Origin: Termitomyces sp. T153
Taxonomy: Eukaryota; Basidiomycota; Agaricomycetes; Agaricales; Lyophyllaceae
DNA length: 64,000 nucleotides
Direction of reading: 5' to 3'
Assembly: GCA_018296165.2 (NCBI GenBank)
Contig: JACKQL020000028.1
Coordinates: 186,001 to 250,000 of the forward strand
The translations under genes and the position numbers were made by a program. The notes below the pieces were generated by a model. That model had not been told where the DNA came from, made no database searches, and saw nothing but the letters and a program-made list of their open reading frames with translations. Numbering within the stretch: position 1 is the stretch's first letter; each line of letters opens with the position of its first letter. Below, one piece after another: positions 56,953 to 64,000 of this stretch.

Positions 56953-57283
56953 TGATACGATGTTGTCACACCATTGGGAACATAATAAACACCAGAAGTC
57001 AAAACAAACATTTATTAAGGCTGAAAACTGTAAGCCTCCTGGTAAAACAAGTCCCAGCAACATTATCCCTTTAAATACACCAGAAGAAAGACAGAACAGG
57101 ATAGGACAAGGACTATACTAGACTATACACTCAATAATAGTCCAATCACTGTAATGGGAGGGGAAGCATGGGACTGGCAAAAGCACCTGAGTGGCATCAA
57201 TTCTGGCAAGATCTAGATCTGATCTAAGAATAACCAGATTGGAATATTGACTGAAAGGAGGTAAAGGAGGAATGAATGAGAAA

Positions 57284-57468
57284 GAATGGAATGAAGGGAA
57301 GGGAAAGGAAGATGAATGGAAGGATATGAAATGAATGGAATGAAGGGAAGGGAAAGGAAGATGAATGGAAGGATATGAAATGAATGGAATGAAGGGAAGG
57401 GAAAGGAAGATGAATGGAAGGATATGAAATGAATGGAATGAAGGGAAGGGAAAGGAAGATGAATGGAA
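57284..57468 (+). repeat. 49-bp minisatellite in the G3 LTR, about 3.8 copies
   Basis: Unit starts GAATGGAATGAAGGGAAGGG; copies at 57284, 57333, 57382 and 57431 appear identical. Diverged GA-rich relatives continue to about 57700. The plus strand is almost pure purine. Confidence 0.93.
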
Positions 57469-57856
57469 GAACCTGAATGGGAAAGAACCTAAAAGGGGAA
57501 GAATATGAAAGGAATAAAGGAAGATGAATGGAATGAATGGGAGGGGACAGATGAATGGAAGAACCTGAATGGGAAAGGACCTGAATGGGGAAGAATATGA
57601 AATAAATAAAGGAAGAAGAAGGGAAGAAACTGAATGGAGAAGAATATGAATGGAAGAAATACAAAGGAGGGAGAGATAAATGGGGCAAATGGAAGCTAAG
57701 AATGCAAAGGAGGAATGATGGAACCAGGAACTGGCCTGTGGCACTGAAACAGGCATGCCAAAAGGGGGAATTAGAATAACAGTTATGAATAAGGGGCTGG
57801 AAAGTATGGAACCAAAAGTCACATGTAGGGGGTGGTCTGTGCACTGTAGAAAGAGG

Positions 57857-57865
57857 TATAAATAG
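57857..57865 (+). promoter_or_regulatory. TATA box of the G3 LTR
   Basis: TATAAATAG in an otherwise GC-balanced setting, 248 bp before the LTR end. Position and motif fit the U3 promoter. Confidence 0.65.
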
Positions 57866-58106
57866 CCCAAGTAGAGTAGCAAATGGACAGGCAATTAATA
57901 GGCAAAGGCTCGGTGGTTCCCAGGGAGTGAATCACTTAGGCTGGAGTTTGTTGAGACCCCTCTGCATTCAGAATAGAAATATTTTGGAAGTAAACCCCTT
58001 CAACTTCAAGCATTCATCAAGACATCAGTGTGGAATTAGAGTAGACTGCCTAAGTCTTCAAGAAAGCCCCAGAACTATCAGTATTACTCTAACCCAGTAC
58101 TACATC

Positions 58107-58117
58107 TGGAGCCCACC
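58107..58117 (+). promoter_or_regulatory. G3 primer-binding site (tRNA type)
   Basis: TGGAGCCCACC starts 2 nt after the LTR and extends as GCGAGGGGC. It is conserved in the decayed copy (26341-26350). TGG pairs with a tRNA CCA end; the GGGCTCCA complement recalls tRNA-Lys, but I cannot confirm the tRNA. Confidence 0.65.
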
Positions 58118-58445
58118 GCGAGGGGCTTTGGCTTAGAAAGTTTACAAGAAGAAGCACTGTTATCAAGTTCAAGACTTTGTGGACCAGCAAGCAGGGTTCA
58201 CACATCAAGCTAAAATCAAAATATCATTTGCACCAAGAGGGTCTACCCCAGAAAGACTGAAGAGAACAGTGCCAAAGCAAAGGGTCAACACCACAGAGCA
58301 AGTTCACAAGCCCACAACCCACAGCAACAAGACTAAAGCACTCAATCTAATTAGTGTTGGGGACCCTGAACAAATCTTAAGAGCAAGCAGAAAGAAGACC
58401 ACTAAAAATCACAATACATCAACATTACAAAATCAAACATTCAAC

Positions 58446-59723
58446 ATGCCAGCAGAAGTTTCAAAACAAAAGTTACCACTGTCTACAAGCCGTGATGCAC
58501 CTCGCTTCACTCATACTCAGCCATCAGAAGTCCGCCGCTTCATTAGGAAGATGGAAAGCCTCTTCAAGGCTGCAGGAATAAATGATGATGAAGAAAGAAA
58601 GGAAAGAGTAACAGAGTATGTGGATGCAGAAACAGACAGTGAATGGAGAGGATTGGACAGTTTTAGTGATGGATCAAGCTGGGAGACCTTTGTCAAAGAA
58701 GTGCAGAGTTCTTATCCAGAAGCAATATCTGAAGAAGGAAGTGTGGCCATGCTTGACAAGATCTGCAAAGAGCATGCCAGATTAAGTCAGAATGACACAG
58801 AAGAAATTCATGCACTTGTCAGGAAGTTCAGAGCAGAGGCCAAGAAGTTGACAGGAGTATTGGGGAATGGAGCACTGGTGGAGAAATTCACTAAATGCTT
58901 TACTCCAGCATTCAGGGAGCTCATCTTGGCCCAAGCATTACAGAAATATGGACATTATAGTGATGTTAACAGGAAGAGACACAAAGATGACAGATTTGAT
59001 CTGAAAGAAGTCATAAACATAGTGGCTATTTTAGTAGACTCTGGAACTTCCTTCAGGAGTGAAGAAACTATAAAAGAAAGAGGGCCAGGGATGATCAAGG
59101 TTAAACAGGAGGCTGATTTGGAGACTGAGGGAAGGTTAGCCAACCTTCAGGATGGAGTTATGGCTTTGGGAAAAGAGATGAGTAGCTTGAGGGGATTTAT
59201 GCAGACCATGAACAATGAGTGGAAGGCAAAAAGTCAGACTCCTGTGCAAGGGGGACTGCAGAATAGGATTGGAGTACCTGCACAGACTCTGCAGACCATG
59301 CAGTTCCAAGGCAACAGCAATACAGCTGCTGGGATAAACTGTTATCATTGTTGGGAGCTAGGGCATCGTACCAATGACTGTGGATACCTCAAAACTCAAC
59401 TCCAAGAGGGAAAGCTCATTCTTTTTGAAGGCAGGCCTAGGTTACCTTCTGGGGATCCCATTCCCAGGAGTCCACCTAATGTGCCTCCTAAAGAAAGGGT
59501 CAATACAATCATGGATCCAAAAGCTGCAGCCTTCTATGGTTGGGTAGAAGAACCCTTAGTAACTATGCCAAGTATAGCTACTTATGTGCAGGCAGTCCCC
59601 AAAGAGAAAGAAGACTTGGAGAAGAAGATAGAGGAATTGCAGAACTTGGTGTCAAGTCTAATAACCACTAGGAGTCAGGTTTATGAGAAGGGCACCCAGC
59701 AGCAGAAACAGGAGGGTTTTTAG
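58446..59723 (+). CDS. gag: G3 Gag
   Basis: 425 aa. The ATG at 58446 is chosen because the decayed copy at 25689-26034 begins at the same point; the frame is open upstream to 58137 but has no ATG. The N-terminal part (PRFTHTQPSEVRRFIRKMES, SDGSSWETFVKEVQSSYPEA) resembles the core of agaricomycete Gypsy Gag. A helical stretch follows (EEIHALVRKFRAEAKKLTGV). A zinc knuckle CYHC-X4-H-X4-C lies at residues 299-312, and the C-terminus is a coiled coil (KEKEDLEKKIEELQNLVSSL). It should form the particle and bind the RNA. The last codons are GAG GGT TTT TAG, which place a slippery heptamer right at the stop. Confidence 0.93.
   Translation: MPAEVSKQKLPLSTSRDAPRFTHTQPSEVRRFIRKMESLFKAAGINDDEERKERVTEYVDAETDSEWRGLDSFSDGSSWETFVKEVQSSYPEAISEEGSVAMLDKICKEHARLSQNDTEEIHALVRKFRAEAKKLTGVLGNGALVEKFTKCFTPAFRELILAQALQKYGHYSDVNRKRHKDDRFDLKEVINIVAILVDSGTSFRSEETIKERGPGMIKVKQEADLETEGRLANLQDGVMALGKEMSSLRGFMQTMNNEWKAKSQTPVQGGLQNRIGVPAQTLQTMQFQGNSNTAAGINCYHCWELGHRTNDCGYLKTQLQEGKLILFEGRPRLPSGDPIPRSPPNVPPKERVNTIMDPKAAAFYGWVEEPLVTMPSIATYVQAVPKEKEDLEKKIEELQNLVSSLITTRSQVYEKGTQQQKQEGF
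59714..59720 (+). promoter_or_regulatory. -1 frameshift site 1 (gag to protease), GGGTTTT
   Basis: G GGT TTT in gag phase fits X XXY YYZ and is followed at once by the gag TAG. The protease frame (-1) opens at 59687 and is clear through the site. A possible stimulator is the 9-bp stem 59736-59744 / 59777-59785 (one G-U), starting 15 nt downstream, somewhat further than usual. Confidence 0.8.
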
Positions 59724-60736
59724 AGAACTCAAGGAGGGTGGTAGATGGCAAGGTCCAGCCTGAATTGAGGACACCACTACCACCTGAGAGTGATCTAAGA
59801 AGGCAAAGGGGGGTCATAGAGATAGAAAAAGGAAGTCTGCCATTTGAGCAGGTGCCTGCTGTTAATGGAGACAGAGTGATAAAATTTCAAAATGAGAAGA
59901 AAGACTTGTATCAGCCCAGAATATGGCAAAGAAAGGAGGAAGAAATTGTTAGTAAAATACTGGATAGTGAAGTAACAGTCTCTACCAGGGAACTGTTGAA
60001 GGTACCAGCAATACAGGAAGCTTTGGAGAAGACCTGGAGAAAGAAAGAAGGTGCTACCAAGTGGTCAGCAGCCAAGGTCTTTGTGCAGGATAGTGAGGAG
60101 GAATCTGTGATGGCACAAGTCAATATAGATGACTTGCCTCAGCCAAGTTATCATATCTCAAAAGGTGAAGAAGAAGGAATTCCAAAGGGATCAGTGGTTC
60201 ATGAAGACTGTGTTGCTACCTTCTTGGAACAGCTTCCACCAGGGGATAGGCCTGAAATGGTCTATGTGGCTAGAGACTTGCAGGTGTTAAGGTCTCTGTA
60301 CCCTAGTGTGAATGACCAGGCTAAGATGGAAGCCATATTGGATAGTGGGTCTCAGATTGTGTGCATGGCCTTGGACAAAGCTCTAAGTTTGGGCCTAACT
60401 TGGGATCCTGACATAAGACTGCGCATGGAGAGTGCCAATCAACAAGTCAATGAGTCTTTGGGAATGGCTAAGAATGTGCCCTTCAAGTTTGCTGAAGGTT
60501 TCACAATATACTTGCAAGTGCATATATTTGAGAAACCTGCCTATACAGTACTACTGGGGAGGCCATTTGACACAGCAACAGAGAGCAATGTGCAGAACTT
60601 GAAGGATGGGAGTGCAATTATCACCATCAGGGACCCTAATACTGGGAAGAGAACTGCACTACCCACCTTTGAGAGAGGGAAGAAACCTCCTGACAAAAAT
60701 GAAGACTTGGGAAAAGTGTCAGCCTTGAGGAATTGA
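59720..60736 (+). CDS. G3 protease, expressed as Gag-PR by frameshift
   Basis: The frame entered at 59714-59720 runs 338 codons to TGA 60734-60736. No ATG stands near its start (first codons TTA GAG AAC), so translation by frameshift is the simplest reading. The N-terminal 190 residues are a charged linker (GDRVIKFQNEKKDLYQPRIW). The retropepsin follows: MEAILDSGSQIVCMA (DSG at 60341-60349), and VLLGRPFDTATES near 60550, the ILG-type flap partner. It would cleave the polyproteins. Its length is larger than a minimal retropepsin because of the linker. Confidence 0.88.
   Translation, partial: LENSRRVVDGKVQPELRTPLPPESDLRRQRGVIEIEKGSLPFEQVPAVNGDRVIKFQNEKKDLYQPRIWQRKEEEIVSKILDSEVTVSTRELLKVPAIQEALEKTWRKKEGATKWSAAKVFVQDSEEESVMAQVNIDDLPQPSYHISKGEEEGIPKGSVVHEDCVATFLEQLPPGDRPEMVYVARDLQVLRSLYPSVNDQAKMEAILDSGSQIVCMALDKALSLGLTWDPDIRLRMESANQQVNESLGMAKNVPFKFAEGFTIYLQVHIFEKPAYTVLLGRPFDTATESNVQNLKDGSAIITIRDPNTGKRTALPTFERGKKPPDKNEDLGKVSALRN
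60709..60715 (+). promoter_or_regulatory. -1 frameshift site 2 (protease to pol), GGGAAAA
   Basis: G GGA AAA in protease phase fits X XXY YYZ. The pol frame has a stop at 60700-60702 and the protease frame stops at 60734-60736, so the usable overlap is only 34 nt, and it contains this heptamer. A 6-bp stem CAGCCT/AGGCTG (60720-60725 / 60752-60757) starts 4 nt downstream. Confidence 0.82.
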
Positions 60737-63700
60737 TCCCTGACCAAGGAGAGGCTGCAGTAATGATAGAGGGCAGTGAAGAGGAGGGTTTCTGGATTAA
60801 GGGGTACTGTGTTAAGGAGAAGAGCTTTGAGCAGCAAGAACTCAAGGATGCATTCTTGTATGCTTACCATGCCACTGGAGTAGCAGGAGAAAGGACAGGG
60901 CAGTTATTAGGAGCTTATCTGAATGGGGAGCTAGGATACCTACCTGAAGAATTCAAGAGTGGGGGGGAGAAAAGCCAGGAAGAAACAGTACAAGTGTTTG
61001 GGAAGTATAAGCCTGTAGCCAAGAAAGTTAGGCCAGTCCTAGGTACTACACCAGAAGAGTTCAGGATAGAGAGGAATATCATTGGGGACCCTTTAAAGGA
61101 TATGCCACCTTTGAATCCAAATCCACCTGAATTCAGACCTACTGGGAGGTACACAGAGGAGTGCAAACAGATTATAGACAAAGCACATGAAGGGGAGTTT
61201 CTATGGCCAGAAGAAAGAAAGTTACTGCACCACTTGATGATGCAGCAAAATGAAGCTTTTGCATGGAATGATAGTCAGAAGGGGAAGTTCAAAGAGGAAT
61301 ACTTTCCACCAGTGGTGATGCCGGTAGTACCTCACCAGCCATGGGTGTTGAAGAACAGACCCATTCCTCCTGGAAAGTACAATGATCTGTGTAAGGAGAT
61401 TAAGAGGAAGTTGGAAGCAGGGGTTTATGAGAGGTCAAATTCCTCATATAGATCACAATGGTTTGCAGTTCTGAAGAAGGATGGGAAAAGTCTAAGGATT
61501 GTGCATAGTCTGGAACCTCTAAACAAGGTCACAATAGCACATTCTGGAGTACCTCCTGCTACAGAAGAGCTAGCCAACCACTTTGCTGGAAGAGCATGTG
61601 GAGGCATGTGTGATCTCTATGTTGGATATGATGAAAGAACTTTGGACCCCAAGTCCAGAGATTATACAACCTTTCAGACACCCTATGGAGCTCTGAGATT
61701 GGTTACATTACCAATGGGATGGACTAATTCAGTTCCTATATTCCATGATGATGTTACCTATATCTTGCAGGAAGAAATACCCCATCTCACTTGGCCTTAC
61801 ATTGATGATGTTCCAATAAGAGGACCAGAGACTAGGTATGAGCTAGAAGGGGGAGGTTATGAGACCATTGCAGAAAACAAGGGGATTAGGCGCTTTGTAT
61901 GGGAGCATCTGGACAATGTGAATAGGATTGTGCAGCGCATCAAGTATGCTGGAGGAACCTTTTCAGGGATTAAGTCTGTGCTATGTGCAGATGAAATAAC
62001 TGTAGTAGGTCACTTGTGCTCTTATGAAGGTCGCAAGCCAGAAACAAAGAGATATGCAGTAGTCATGAGCTGGGGAGACTGTCATAATGTCTCAGAGGTT
62101 AGAAAGTTTCTGGGGACTTGTGGCACATTTAGGATGTTCATCCAAGATTATGCCAAGATCTCAGAACCTATTAATAGGTTGACTAAGGAAGATGTGGCCT
62201 TTGTCTGGGGAGAAGAACAGAAGGAGGCTATGAAGGAAATGAAGAGGAGGTTAGCAAGTTGTGCAGCCCTGAAACCCATAGACTATGAGTCTGAAGGTGC
62301 TGTAATCTTGGCAGTGGACACTTCTTGGATGGCTGTTGGGTTTGGTATCTTCCAGGAGGATGGTAGCAATCCCAAGATAAGGACTTGTGCTAGACTAGGG
62401 TCAATCACTCTGAATGAGAGAGAAGCCAGGTTTTCACAACCTAAGAGGGAGTTGTATGGGCTTATGAGAGCCTTGCAAGTCAGCAGCTATTGGTTACTAG
62501 GGTGCAGGAAGCTTATTGTTGAGAGTGATGCTAAGTACCTGAAAGGGATGCTAAGCAATCCAGGGATTGGGCCTAATGCCACTATAATGCGCTGGGTGGA
62601 AGCTGTACTTATGTATCACTTCACCTTGAGGCATGTCCCAGGGAAGACTTTCAGTATGGATGGTTTATCTCGCAGGGAGAAGCAGCCAGGGGATGAGGAG
62701 TATGCTCCTGTAGATCAGTCACTATTGGATGATCCCAAACCAATGATCTTTGAATATCCAGATGAGATTAACAAAGTACCTGGTTGGGAGGAGCATGTGC
62801 CCCTCAAGTTGGAAGACTTCATAGGCCAGATTGACACAAGAGGAGGTTACTTGCTAGCAACATCTCCAGAAGATGTGCAAGAAGAAGTGAAGTTGGGTAG
62901 AGACAGGGAGCAGGGGATAGGCTTAAGGTTGCAAGAGAAGAGTAATAAAGCAGGAACTACCTTGAATCCAGTGGCAGTTCTAACTTTGTCTACACTCTTG
63001 TTACCAGAAGAACCCTCTTCCTCTACAGTAGGAGAGTACCAAGAAGAGAGAAGAACAGAGAAGGGGAAAACCTTAGACAGTCTCTTGCCTCTAGTACAGG
63101 ACTGGCTTAGGCATCCTGGAAAAGTACAAAGAGAAGTGTTAGGGATGAAAGAAGGACAGTTTCTCAAGTTTGCAAGACAATTCTTCTTTGATCTTAAAGG
63201 AAGGCTCTATAGAAGAGGAGAAGAAGGAAAACACAAGCTAGTGATAGAGAAGGACAGGAGGATGTACATGTTGAAGTCAGCCCATGATGCACTAGGCCAT
63301 AGAGGGACCTTTGCAACTAAAGCATTGTTAGAGGAAAGGTTTTGGTGGCCAGAAATGGAAGCAGATGTAAAGTGGTACATAGACACTTGTCATGCTTGCC
63401 AAGTTCGTCAGAAGGTGGCAGTGTGCAGGCAACCAGTGGTAGCCTATACTCCTAGTATATTTGAAACCATACACTTGGATACCATGCATATGACACCAAG
63501 TTCAAATGGGTGTAAATATATTGTACATGGGAGGTGTGCTTTAACCTCATGGATGGAAGGTAGACCTTTGAGGAAGGACAACCACAAGTTGATTGGGCAG
63601 TGGCTATTTGAAGAAGTAATCTGTAGATGGGGGTGCATAAGCAACATTGTGACAGACAATGCTGGGCAGTTTACAAAGGTGGTACATTGGCTATCTAAGA

Positions 63701-64000
63701 AGTATGGGATACAGGGCATAACTATTGCTCCCTATAATTCTAGAGCTAATGGAAGGATAGAAAGACCACATTGGGATGTGAGGCAAGCCTTGTATAAAGC
63801 CTGTGAAGACAAGACCAAGTGGTATTGGTTCTTCTGGCATGTAATGTGGGCAGACAGGATCACAGTTAGAAAGAGGTTTGGGTGTTCCCCCTTTTTCTTA
63901 GTAACTGGAGCACATCCTATTCTACCATTGGACTTAGTGGAGGCAACTTGGTTAGTGGACTGGCCTGAAGGACCAGTGTCTACTGAAGAACTAGTTGGCC
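60715..64000 (+). CDS. pol: G3 Pol: reverse transcriptase, RNase H, integrase (C-terminus beyond window)
   Basis: Open without a stop for about 1,095 codons to the window edge. RT occupies about 61340-61990 (RSQWFAVLKKDGKSLRIVHS, TLPMGWTNSVPIFHDDVTYI, catalytic YIDD at 61798-61809). After YIDD a stretch VPIRGPETRYELEGGGYETI separates it from the thumb. RNase H has VILAVDTSWMAVGFGIF (Asp at 62317), RELYGLMRAL, VESDAKYL and RHVPGKTFSMDGLSR. Integrase has HX4H and CHAC (63290-63405), IHLDTMHMTP (Asp 63478), VTDNAGQF (Asp 63655) and NGRIERPH (Glu 63760, 35 residues on). No chromodomain is seen within the window. The frame is entered at the GGGAAAA site. Confidence 0.95.

What the first reader, a model, noticed from the sequence alone, without database searches (positions are those of the whole stretch)
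59687..60736. Two successive -1 frameshift sites give a retrovirus-like gag-pro-pol layout in a fungal Ty3/Gypsy element
Gag (ends 59723), protease (ends 60736) and pol (open to 64000) lie in three frames, each -1 relative to the one before. Both overlaps are short and each contains a canonical X XXY YYZ heptamer in the correct phase: GGGTTTT directly before the gag TAG, and GGGAAAA inside a 34-nt window. The rest of the element is open, so random indels are unlikely. Ty3 uses one +1 shift and some fungal Gypsy elements one -1 shift. I know of no described Ty3/Gypsy with two -1 shifts, the strategy of HTLV- or MMTV-like viruses.
Basis: partly seen in the sequence, partly recalled or inferred. 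Interest (0 to 1): 0.88.

Follow-up and report, generated by a model that had tools for sequence, protein, structure and literature searches.

The report
Jumping gene with two frameshift steps
A mushroom jumping gene of the Ty3/Gypsy kind appears to make its three proteins in falling amounts by having ribosomes slip back one base at two successive places, a trick described in some retroviruses; relatives share the arrangement, but the slippage itself has not been measured.

Summary
Gag (58446-59723), protease (59687-60736) and pol (60703 onward) lie in three frames, each -1 to the one before, with in-phase heptamers GGGTTTT (59714-59720) and GGGAAAA (60709-60715). The chance of an in-phase heptamer in both overlaps is about 0.0002-0.0006. 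The host looks like Termitomyces.

It is not decay. Site 1 is intact in 20 of 20 other copies read, site 2 in 18 of 20. A sister family with saturated synonymous sites keeps the -1/-1 layout, each frame under purifying selection. A stem starting 7 nt after site 1 covaries between lineages. Stand-alone protease and pol proteins abound in relatives.

Best explanation: two-step programmed -1 frameshifting, as in betaretroviruses but within Ty3/Gypsy. Site 1 is well supported. Site 2 is weaker: no downstream structure was found in this family, and sister families carry a non-canonical A_AAA_TTT there. One copy has protease and pol fused; a distant family has gag-protease fused and pol at +1.

Ten literature searches listed no Ty3/Gypsy element with two -1 shifts; the 2003 survey was not held. 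New variant of a known kind.

The parts
56953..58104 (+). 5' LTR; its counterpart (57840-58104) recurs at C28:253327-253591, about 9.5 kb further on
   Evidence: start from the edge of homology between copies; end from where matches elsewhere stop
58107..58126 (+). primer-binding-site-like stretch TGGAGCCCACCGCGAGGGGC
   Evidence: position and TGG start, by eye; no tRNA match was made
58446..59723 (+). gag, 425 aa, with a CCHC-like zinc knuckle (CYHCWELGHRTNDC, by eye)
   Evidence: homologue P0121 99% identical over the whole query
59714..59720 (+). slippery heptamer 1, G_GGT_TTT, directly before the gag TAG
   Evidence: 20 of 20 copies
59728..59790 (+). stem 7 nt after heptamer 1: lower pairs 59728-59730 with 59788-59790, upper pairs 59736-59744 with 59777-59785
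   Evidence: z -3.80, 0 of 200 shuffles; covariation
59687..60736 (+). protease ORF, stop to stop; entered at 59720 by the first shift; Asp protease domain about 60308-60568
60709..60715 (+). slippery heptamer 2, G_GGA_AAA, in the 34-nt PR/pol overlap
   Evidence: 18 of 20 copies
60703..64000 (+). pol (RT, RNase H, integrase), entered at 60715 by the second shift; continues to contig position 250491

Best explanation
This is a Ty3/Gypsy LTR retrotransposon of a Termitomyces-like mushroom, recently active to judge by its near-identical copies, whose full-length RNA is decoded with two successive programmed -1 ribosomal frameshifts. Most ribosomes stop at the gag TAG and make Gag. Some slip -1 on GGGUUUU, helped by the stem 7 nt downstream, and make Gag-Pro. 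Some of these slip -1 again on GGGAAAA and make Gag-Pro-Pol. Shown here: the three-frame layout, its conservation, selection in each frame, heptamers in phase, a covarying stem at site 1. Inferred: that ribosomes slip, how often, and the stepped protein ratio.
For: In-phase heptamers in both overlaps, joint chance 0.0002-0.0006. Site 1 in 20 of 20 and site 2 in 18 of 20 copies; 10 of 20 open in all three tested segments. F2 keeps the -1/-1 layout: gag/PR in 12 of 12 fetched copies, with a pol ORF of at least 130 aa at the -1 place in 11 of 12. Synonymous sites between F1 and F2 saturated (pS 0.78-0.81) with pN 0.37 gag, 0.31 pro, 0.19 pol. Stem after site 1: z -3.80 in F1 and -2.65 in F4, covariation above all of 500 shuffles. 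In 2 of 6 distant PR/pol protein pairs one DNA can encode both ends, and only in the -1 phase.
Against: No downstream stem at site 2 in F1: z +1.19 and +2.07. F2 and F4 carry A_AAA_TTT at site 2, not a canonical heptamer. F2's site 1 stem is not significant on its own (z -1.62 over 70 nt; -0.68 over 80 nt). L026 has PR and pol fused, L021 lost one base of heptamer 2. F3 has gag-PR fused and pol +1. Five of 120 pol relatives hold a PR motif. No translation data of any kind.
Confidence: 0.82

Rival explanations
1. Decay: gag, PR and pol were once one frame, and chance indels separated them.
For: Several copies do carry stops and indels; one copy, L026, has PR and pol in one frame.
Against: The same two frame changes in 10 of 20 copies otherwise open in the tested segments, in the sister family F2, and with selection in all three frames.
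Confidence: 0.02
2. Splicing: introns remove the stops and join the frames on a spliced mRNA.
For: Some public gene models of relatives run from gag into PR (P0125, P0136), which I read as predicted introns; the PR N-terminus is poorly conserved (pN 0.50).
Against: The -1 frame is open straight from both heptamers, an in-phase heptamer sits at each junction, and a covarying stem follows site 1.
Confidence: 0.05
3. Stop and restart: ribosomes terminate at the gag or PR stop and reinitiate at a nearby ATG.
For: F2 has an ATG shortly after the gag stop in the PR frame, and F1 and F2 share a GTAATG in the pol frame after the PR stop.
Against: In F1 the first Met of the PR frame is about 130 codons in. 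The pol ATG is not kept in F4 DNA (GCAGTGAG) nor, as Met, in many pol relatives. Conserved pol residues lie before the ATG.
Confidence: 0.06
4. Polymerase slippage: RNA polymerase or reverse transcriptase adds or drops a base at short homopolymers, making in-frame RNAs.
For: Both sites hold short homopolymers, T5 and A4; it could also serve the non-canonical site 2 of F2 and F4.
Against: The runs are shorter than in the cases I recall, and an in-phase heptamer with a covarying stem 7 nt downstream is what ribosomal slippage would need.
Confidence: 0.04

Closest known systems
Betaretroviruses (MMTV, JSRV)
   Same: gag, pro and pol in three frames, -1/-1 (PMC1224870, passages); PMC5009743 (passages) says some retroviruses use two -1 shifts, the first the more efficient.
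   Different: Retroviruses of vertebrates with env; here a fungal Ty3/Gypsy element with no env-sized sense ORF found after pol. The MMTV heptamers are recalled only.
Ty3 (Saccharomyces)
   Same: Ty3/Gypsy domain order; top solved-structure match of pol, E 4.2e-27.
   Different: Ty1-Ty4 have pol in the +1 frame, a single gag/pol shift (PMC7175516, passages).
CsRn1-like elements and PEG10/RTL3, Ty3/Gypsy-derived
   Same: -1 frameshift after gag (PMC2582038, passages; PMC11011659, passages).
   Different: Two ORFs, one -1 shift; no second shift between PR and pol is described in the passages seen.
Fungal chromodomain Gypsy elements (MarY1, Laccy, Tcn and others)
   Same: Ty3/Gypsy of basidiomycetes.
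   Different: The majority of full-length ones surveyed have one or two ORFs (PMC2864245, passages).
F3, a distant family in the same genome (L049)
   Same: Related PR (45%) and RT (56%).
   Different: gag and PR in one frame, pol +1 with a 134-nt overlap.

Membership tests
Ty3/Gypsy LTR retrotransposon (Metaviridae) | PR, then RT-RNase H, then integrase | tested here: met
   Pfam protease in ORF2; RNase H then integrase zinc finger in pol; RT and RNase H part aligned to Ty3. Pfam's RT model RVT_1 was not among the matches listed.
Ty3/Gypsy LTR retrotransposon (Metaviridae) | long terminal repeats | tested here: met
   LTR of 56953-58104 with a copy about 9.5 kb downstream
Ty3/Gypsy LTR retrotransposon (Metaviridae) | closest to Ty3/Gypsy reverse transcriptases in a tree | not tested
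   No RT tree was built; only the similarity search
Programmed -1 frameshift signal, site 1 | in-phase X_XXY_YYZ heptamer and a structure 5-9 nt downstream | tested here: met
   G_GGT_TTT; stem from 7 nt on, z -3.80, covarying
Programmed -1 frameshift signal, site 2 | in-phase X_XXY_YYZ heptamer | tested here: met
   G_GGA_AAA in F1; not met in F2 and F4, which have A_AAA_TTT
Programmed -1 frameshift signal, site 2 | stimulatory structure downstream | tested here: not met
   z +1.19 over 70 nt, +2.07 over 80 nt in F1; pseudoknots were only enumerated, not scored
Programmed -1 frameshifting | measured -1 product | not testable with these tools
   needs a reporter assay, ribosome profiling or mass spectrometry
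Betaretrovirus (Retroviridae) | gag/pro/pol at -1/-1 | tested here: met
   parallel from PMC1224870. It works like one in this respect.
Betaretrovirus (Retroviridae) | env gene after pol | tested here: not met
   No sense ORF over 94 aa after pol in the 1.9 kb read, so not filed as a retrovirus

The most novel reading that the evidence does not exclude
A large, old clade of mushroom Ty3/Gypsy elements uses two-step -1 frameshifting as its ancestral expression system. Its second site has turned over between GGATTTN-like, GGGAAAA and a working non-canonical A_AAA_UUU signal, with F3-like fused gag-PR and +1 pol as an alternative state, so that the clade is a natural series of exchanged recoding signals.
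Probability: 0.4. Interest if true: 0.75.

Novelty: new variant of a known kind. Interest (0 to 1): 0.64.

Why it matters
It would extend the two-step -1 strategy of some retroviruses, which sets separate doses of Gag, protease and Pol, to Ty3/Gypsy elements of fungi, suggesting that separate control of protease dose arose more than once or is older than retroviruses. Families with different slippery sites side by side in one genome give a direct test of how recoding signals evolve, and the covarying stem offers a fungal stimulator to assay in yeast.

Tried and rejected
Scans of viral contigs with pol and with the PR alignment A1, and of genome contigs with A1, gave no relative, so the DNA of the metagenome relatives could not be read. 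Gao et al. 2003 (recalled; I take it to be the survey that PMC5009743 summarises) was not held. An H-type pseudoknot at site 1 (CTCAA/TTGAG plus GGGTGGTAG/CTACCACCT) came up for F1; its first stem has no listed counterpart in F2, so I preferred the covarying stem. The covariance model R1 was not accepted on the own genome. Alignments A2 and A4 each held a wrongly placed row from L027 and were not used for counts. The nine pairs counted were chosen after one search had shown which pairs hold. At site 2 the CTGGTC/GACCAG hairpin of F2 (z -1.21) was set aside, since the conserved protein there could explain it. In-phase GGGAAAA at 59168 inside gag has no stem after it (z -0.38) and served as a comparison.

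Full report
What is there. The window lies in a 72-Mb assembly of 307 contigs. Its closest public proteins are from Termitomyces: P0001, 98% identical over 56% of PR, and P0121, 99% over all of gag. The element has a 5' LTR at 56953-58104 and a 3' copy about 9.5 kb further on. Gag, protease and pol are in three frames, each -1 to the one before; pol ends 491 bases past the window. The top match of pol among solved structures is Ty3 Gag-Pol, E 4.2e-27. Pfam finds a protease in ORF2 and RNase H followed by an integrase zinc finger in pol.

Chance. Canonical in-phase heptamers (XXX, then AAA or TTT, last base not G) occur 5 times in 1850 codon pairs of gag, pro and pol. Two of the five sit in the two overlaps, which offer 10 and 9 positions. 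The joint chance is 0.0006, 0.0002 or 0.0004 under three null models.

Copies. One search gave 22 copies of this family (F1) at 95-100%, the window's own included and one split in two; I fetched 20 of the other 21. Heptamer 1 is GGGTTTT in 20 of 20, followed by TAG in 19 and TAA in one (L028). Heptamer 2 is GGGAAAA in 18 of 20. From, 10 of 20 (L009-L016, L019, L022) are open in all three tested segments: gag, pro and the first 528 codons of pol. Against: L026 lost 2 nt at site 2, so that PR and pol are one open frame, and L021 lost one base there. L017, L018, L020, L023, L024, L027 and L028 have stops or indels elsewhere. L025 could not be judged in gag, because the compared stretch ran into other DNA. 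The wider site-1 pattern GGDTTTTTADANNNCTCAA (up to one mismatch) occurs 131 times in the genome against 18 for the backward control.

Sister families. F2 (67-72% DNA identity in the aligned parts; 40 matches scored, a lower bound) has the same -1/-1 layout. In 12 of 12 fetched copies (L037-L048) site 1 is G_GAT_TTT then TAA. A pol ORF of at least 130 aa begins at the -1 place in 11 of 12 (not in L038), and 6 of 12 are unbroken in all three frames over the 4.4 kb read. Site 2 is A_AAA_TTT then TAA in 11 of 12, with one substitution in L046. Of seven more loci at 71-74% (L029-L035, worn; called F4), an exact pattern search found the F2-type site 1 in three and the F2-type site 2 in five. A_AAA_TTT is not canonical: the P-site lysine codon re-pairs perfectly, the A-site codon does not. 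Between F1 and F2 synonymous sites are saturated (pS 0.78-0.81), while pN is 0.37 in gag, 0.31 in pro (0.16 in its second half) and 0.19 in the first 528 codons of pol. Each frame has been kept as protein. F3, a distant family (45% PR and 56% RT identity), differs: in L049 gag and PR are one frame and pol is +1 with a 134-nt overlap. The two-step layout is thus not universal.

RNA structure. After site 1 an upper stem (59736-59744 with 59777-59785) sits on a 3-bp lower stem that begins 7 nt after the heptamer. Folding gives, over 80 nt, z -3.80 with 0 of 200 shuffles as good in F1, z -2.65 with 2 of 200 in F4, z -0.68 with 52 of 200 in F2, and z -1.44 with 14 of 200 in the distant L052. Over 70 nt F1 has z -2.27 (3 of 200) and F2 -1.62 (18 of 200). 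On seven rows of three lineages 85.7% of 84 cells pair and 13 cells are changed on both sides; 0 of 500 shuffles reach either value, and sliding by 1-3 columns gives at most 48.8%. RNAalifold, left to itself, finds the main part of this stem. On nine rows, with L052 and the worn L053 added, and nine pairs chosen after, 97.5% of 81 cells pair. The number of pairs changed on both sides and the number of pair types do not exceed the shuffles in either count. After site 2 in F1 there is no stem: z +1.19 with 183 of 200 as good and +2.07 with 198 of 200.

Relatives elsewhere. Of the 120 PR relatives listed (274 found), 104 have [DG]F 3-9 residues before their end, and 98 of these also end in [MR]N. 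G_GAT_TTT or G_GGT_TTT before the PR stop would give this, but it is inferred from protein, not read from DNA. Of 20 gag relatives 10 end in [DG]F, from Termitomyces, Tephrocybe, Arthromyces and one unnamed source. Of the 120 pol relatives listed (1135 found), 97 are 1150-1300 aa long; 5 hold a PR motif and so are joined to PR, in the DNA or by the gene model. Named hosts include Lentinula edodes, Armillaria ostoyae and Coprinellus aureogranulatus. In two of the six (P0019/P0169, P0112/P0186) one DNA can encode both ends over six overlapping codons, in the -1 phase only. In the other four no phase fits with four or more codons, as far as I see because the called pol start lies at or after the PR stop. 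Random pairings fit in 1 of 1500 in the -1 phase and in none in the others.

How it most likely works. Gag is the main product; a first -1 slip makes Gag-Pro; a second -1 slip in a fraction of those makes Gag-Pro-Pol. PMC5009743 (passages) says that where retroviruses use two -1 shifts the first is the more efficient. A strong structure at site 1 only would fit this, but the efficiencies here are unknown.

What is known. I read passages, not whole papers. PMC5009743 reports a 2003 survey of pol frames relative to gag, with -1 common in animals and +1 against -1 less skewed in fungi. PMC2864245 gives one or two ORFs for the majority of the full-length fungal Gypsy elements surveyed. PMC2582038 describes one -1 overlap, or fused or same-frame ORFs, in CsRn1-like elements. 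PMC11011659 treats PEG10 and RTL3, with a -1 shift each. PMC1224870 gives MMTV and JSRV as -1/-1 and leaves Gypsy out of its analysis of translation strategy. PMC7175516 gives +1 for Ty1-Ty4. PMC3587641 was checked because of the words 'two frameshifts' and concerns a damaged Copia sequence. The listings of the ten searches showed me no Ty3/Gypsy element with two -1 shifts. Most subscription papers, Repbase and GyDB were out of reach, so novelty is provisional.

Verdict. It is a new variant of a known kind: two-step -1 recoding, known from retroviruses, in a Ty3/Gypsy lineage. The weak points are the second site and the absence of translation data.

Noticed in passing
L050:494-2127 (contig C28:250494-252127, just past the window end): Between pol and the 3' LTR the window's copy carries about 1.6 kb that is missing in copies L020 and L022 and has 13 matches at 73-100% in the genome. 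Its longest ORF is antisense (138 aa, L050:1761-2177): perhaps a captured or antisense gene in the place of env.
   Followed up: partly
L049 (C2:1913900-1916700): A distant family has gag and PR in one frame and pol at +1 with a 134-nt overlap: another recoding mode, or an intron, in the same genome.
   Followed up: partly
L036-L048, site 2: The PR/pol junction of F2 is A_AAA_TTT before TAA, conserved but not a canonical -1 heptamer; how it shifts is unexplained.
   Followed up: partly
L026 (C48:389000-397500): One F1 copy has PR and pol as a single open frame of 1117 aa through a 2-nt loss at site 2, with gag open: a natural single-shift variant.
   Followed up: partly
57237-57700: Purine-rich tandem array (GGAATGAAGGGAAAGGAAGATGAATGG-like units) within the LTR, of different length in different copies.
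   Followed up: no
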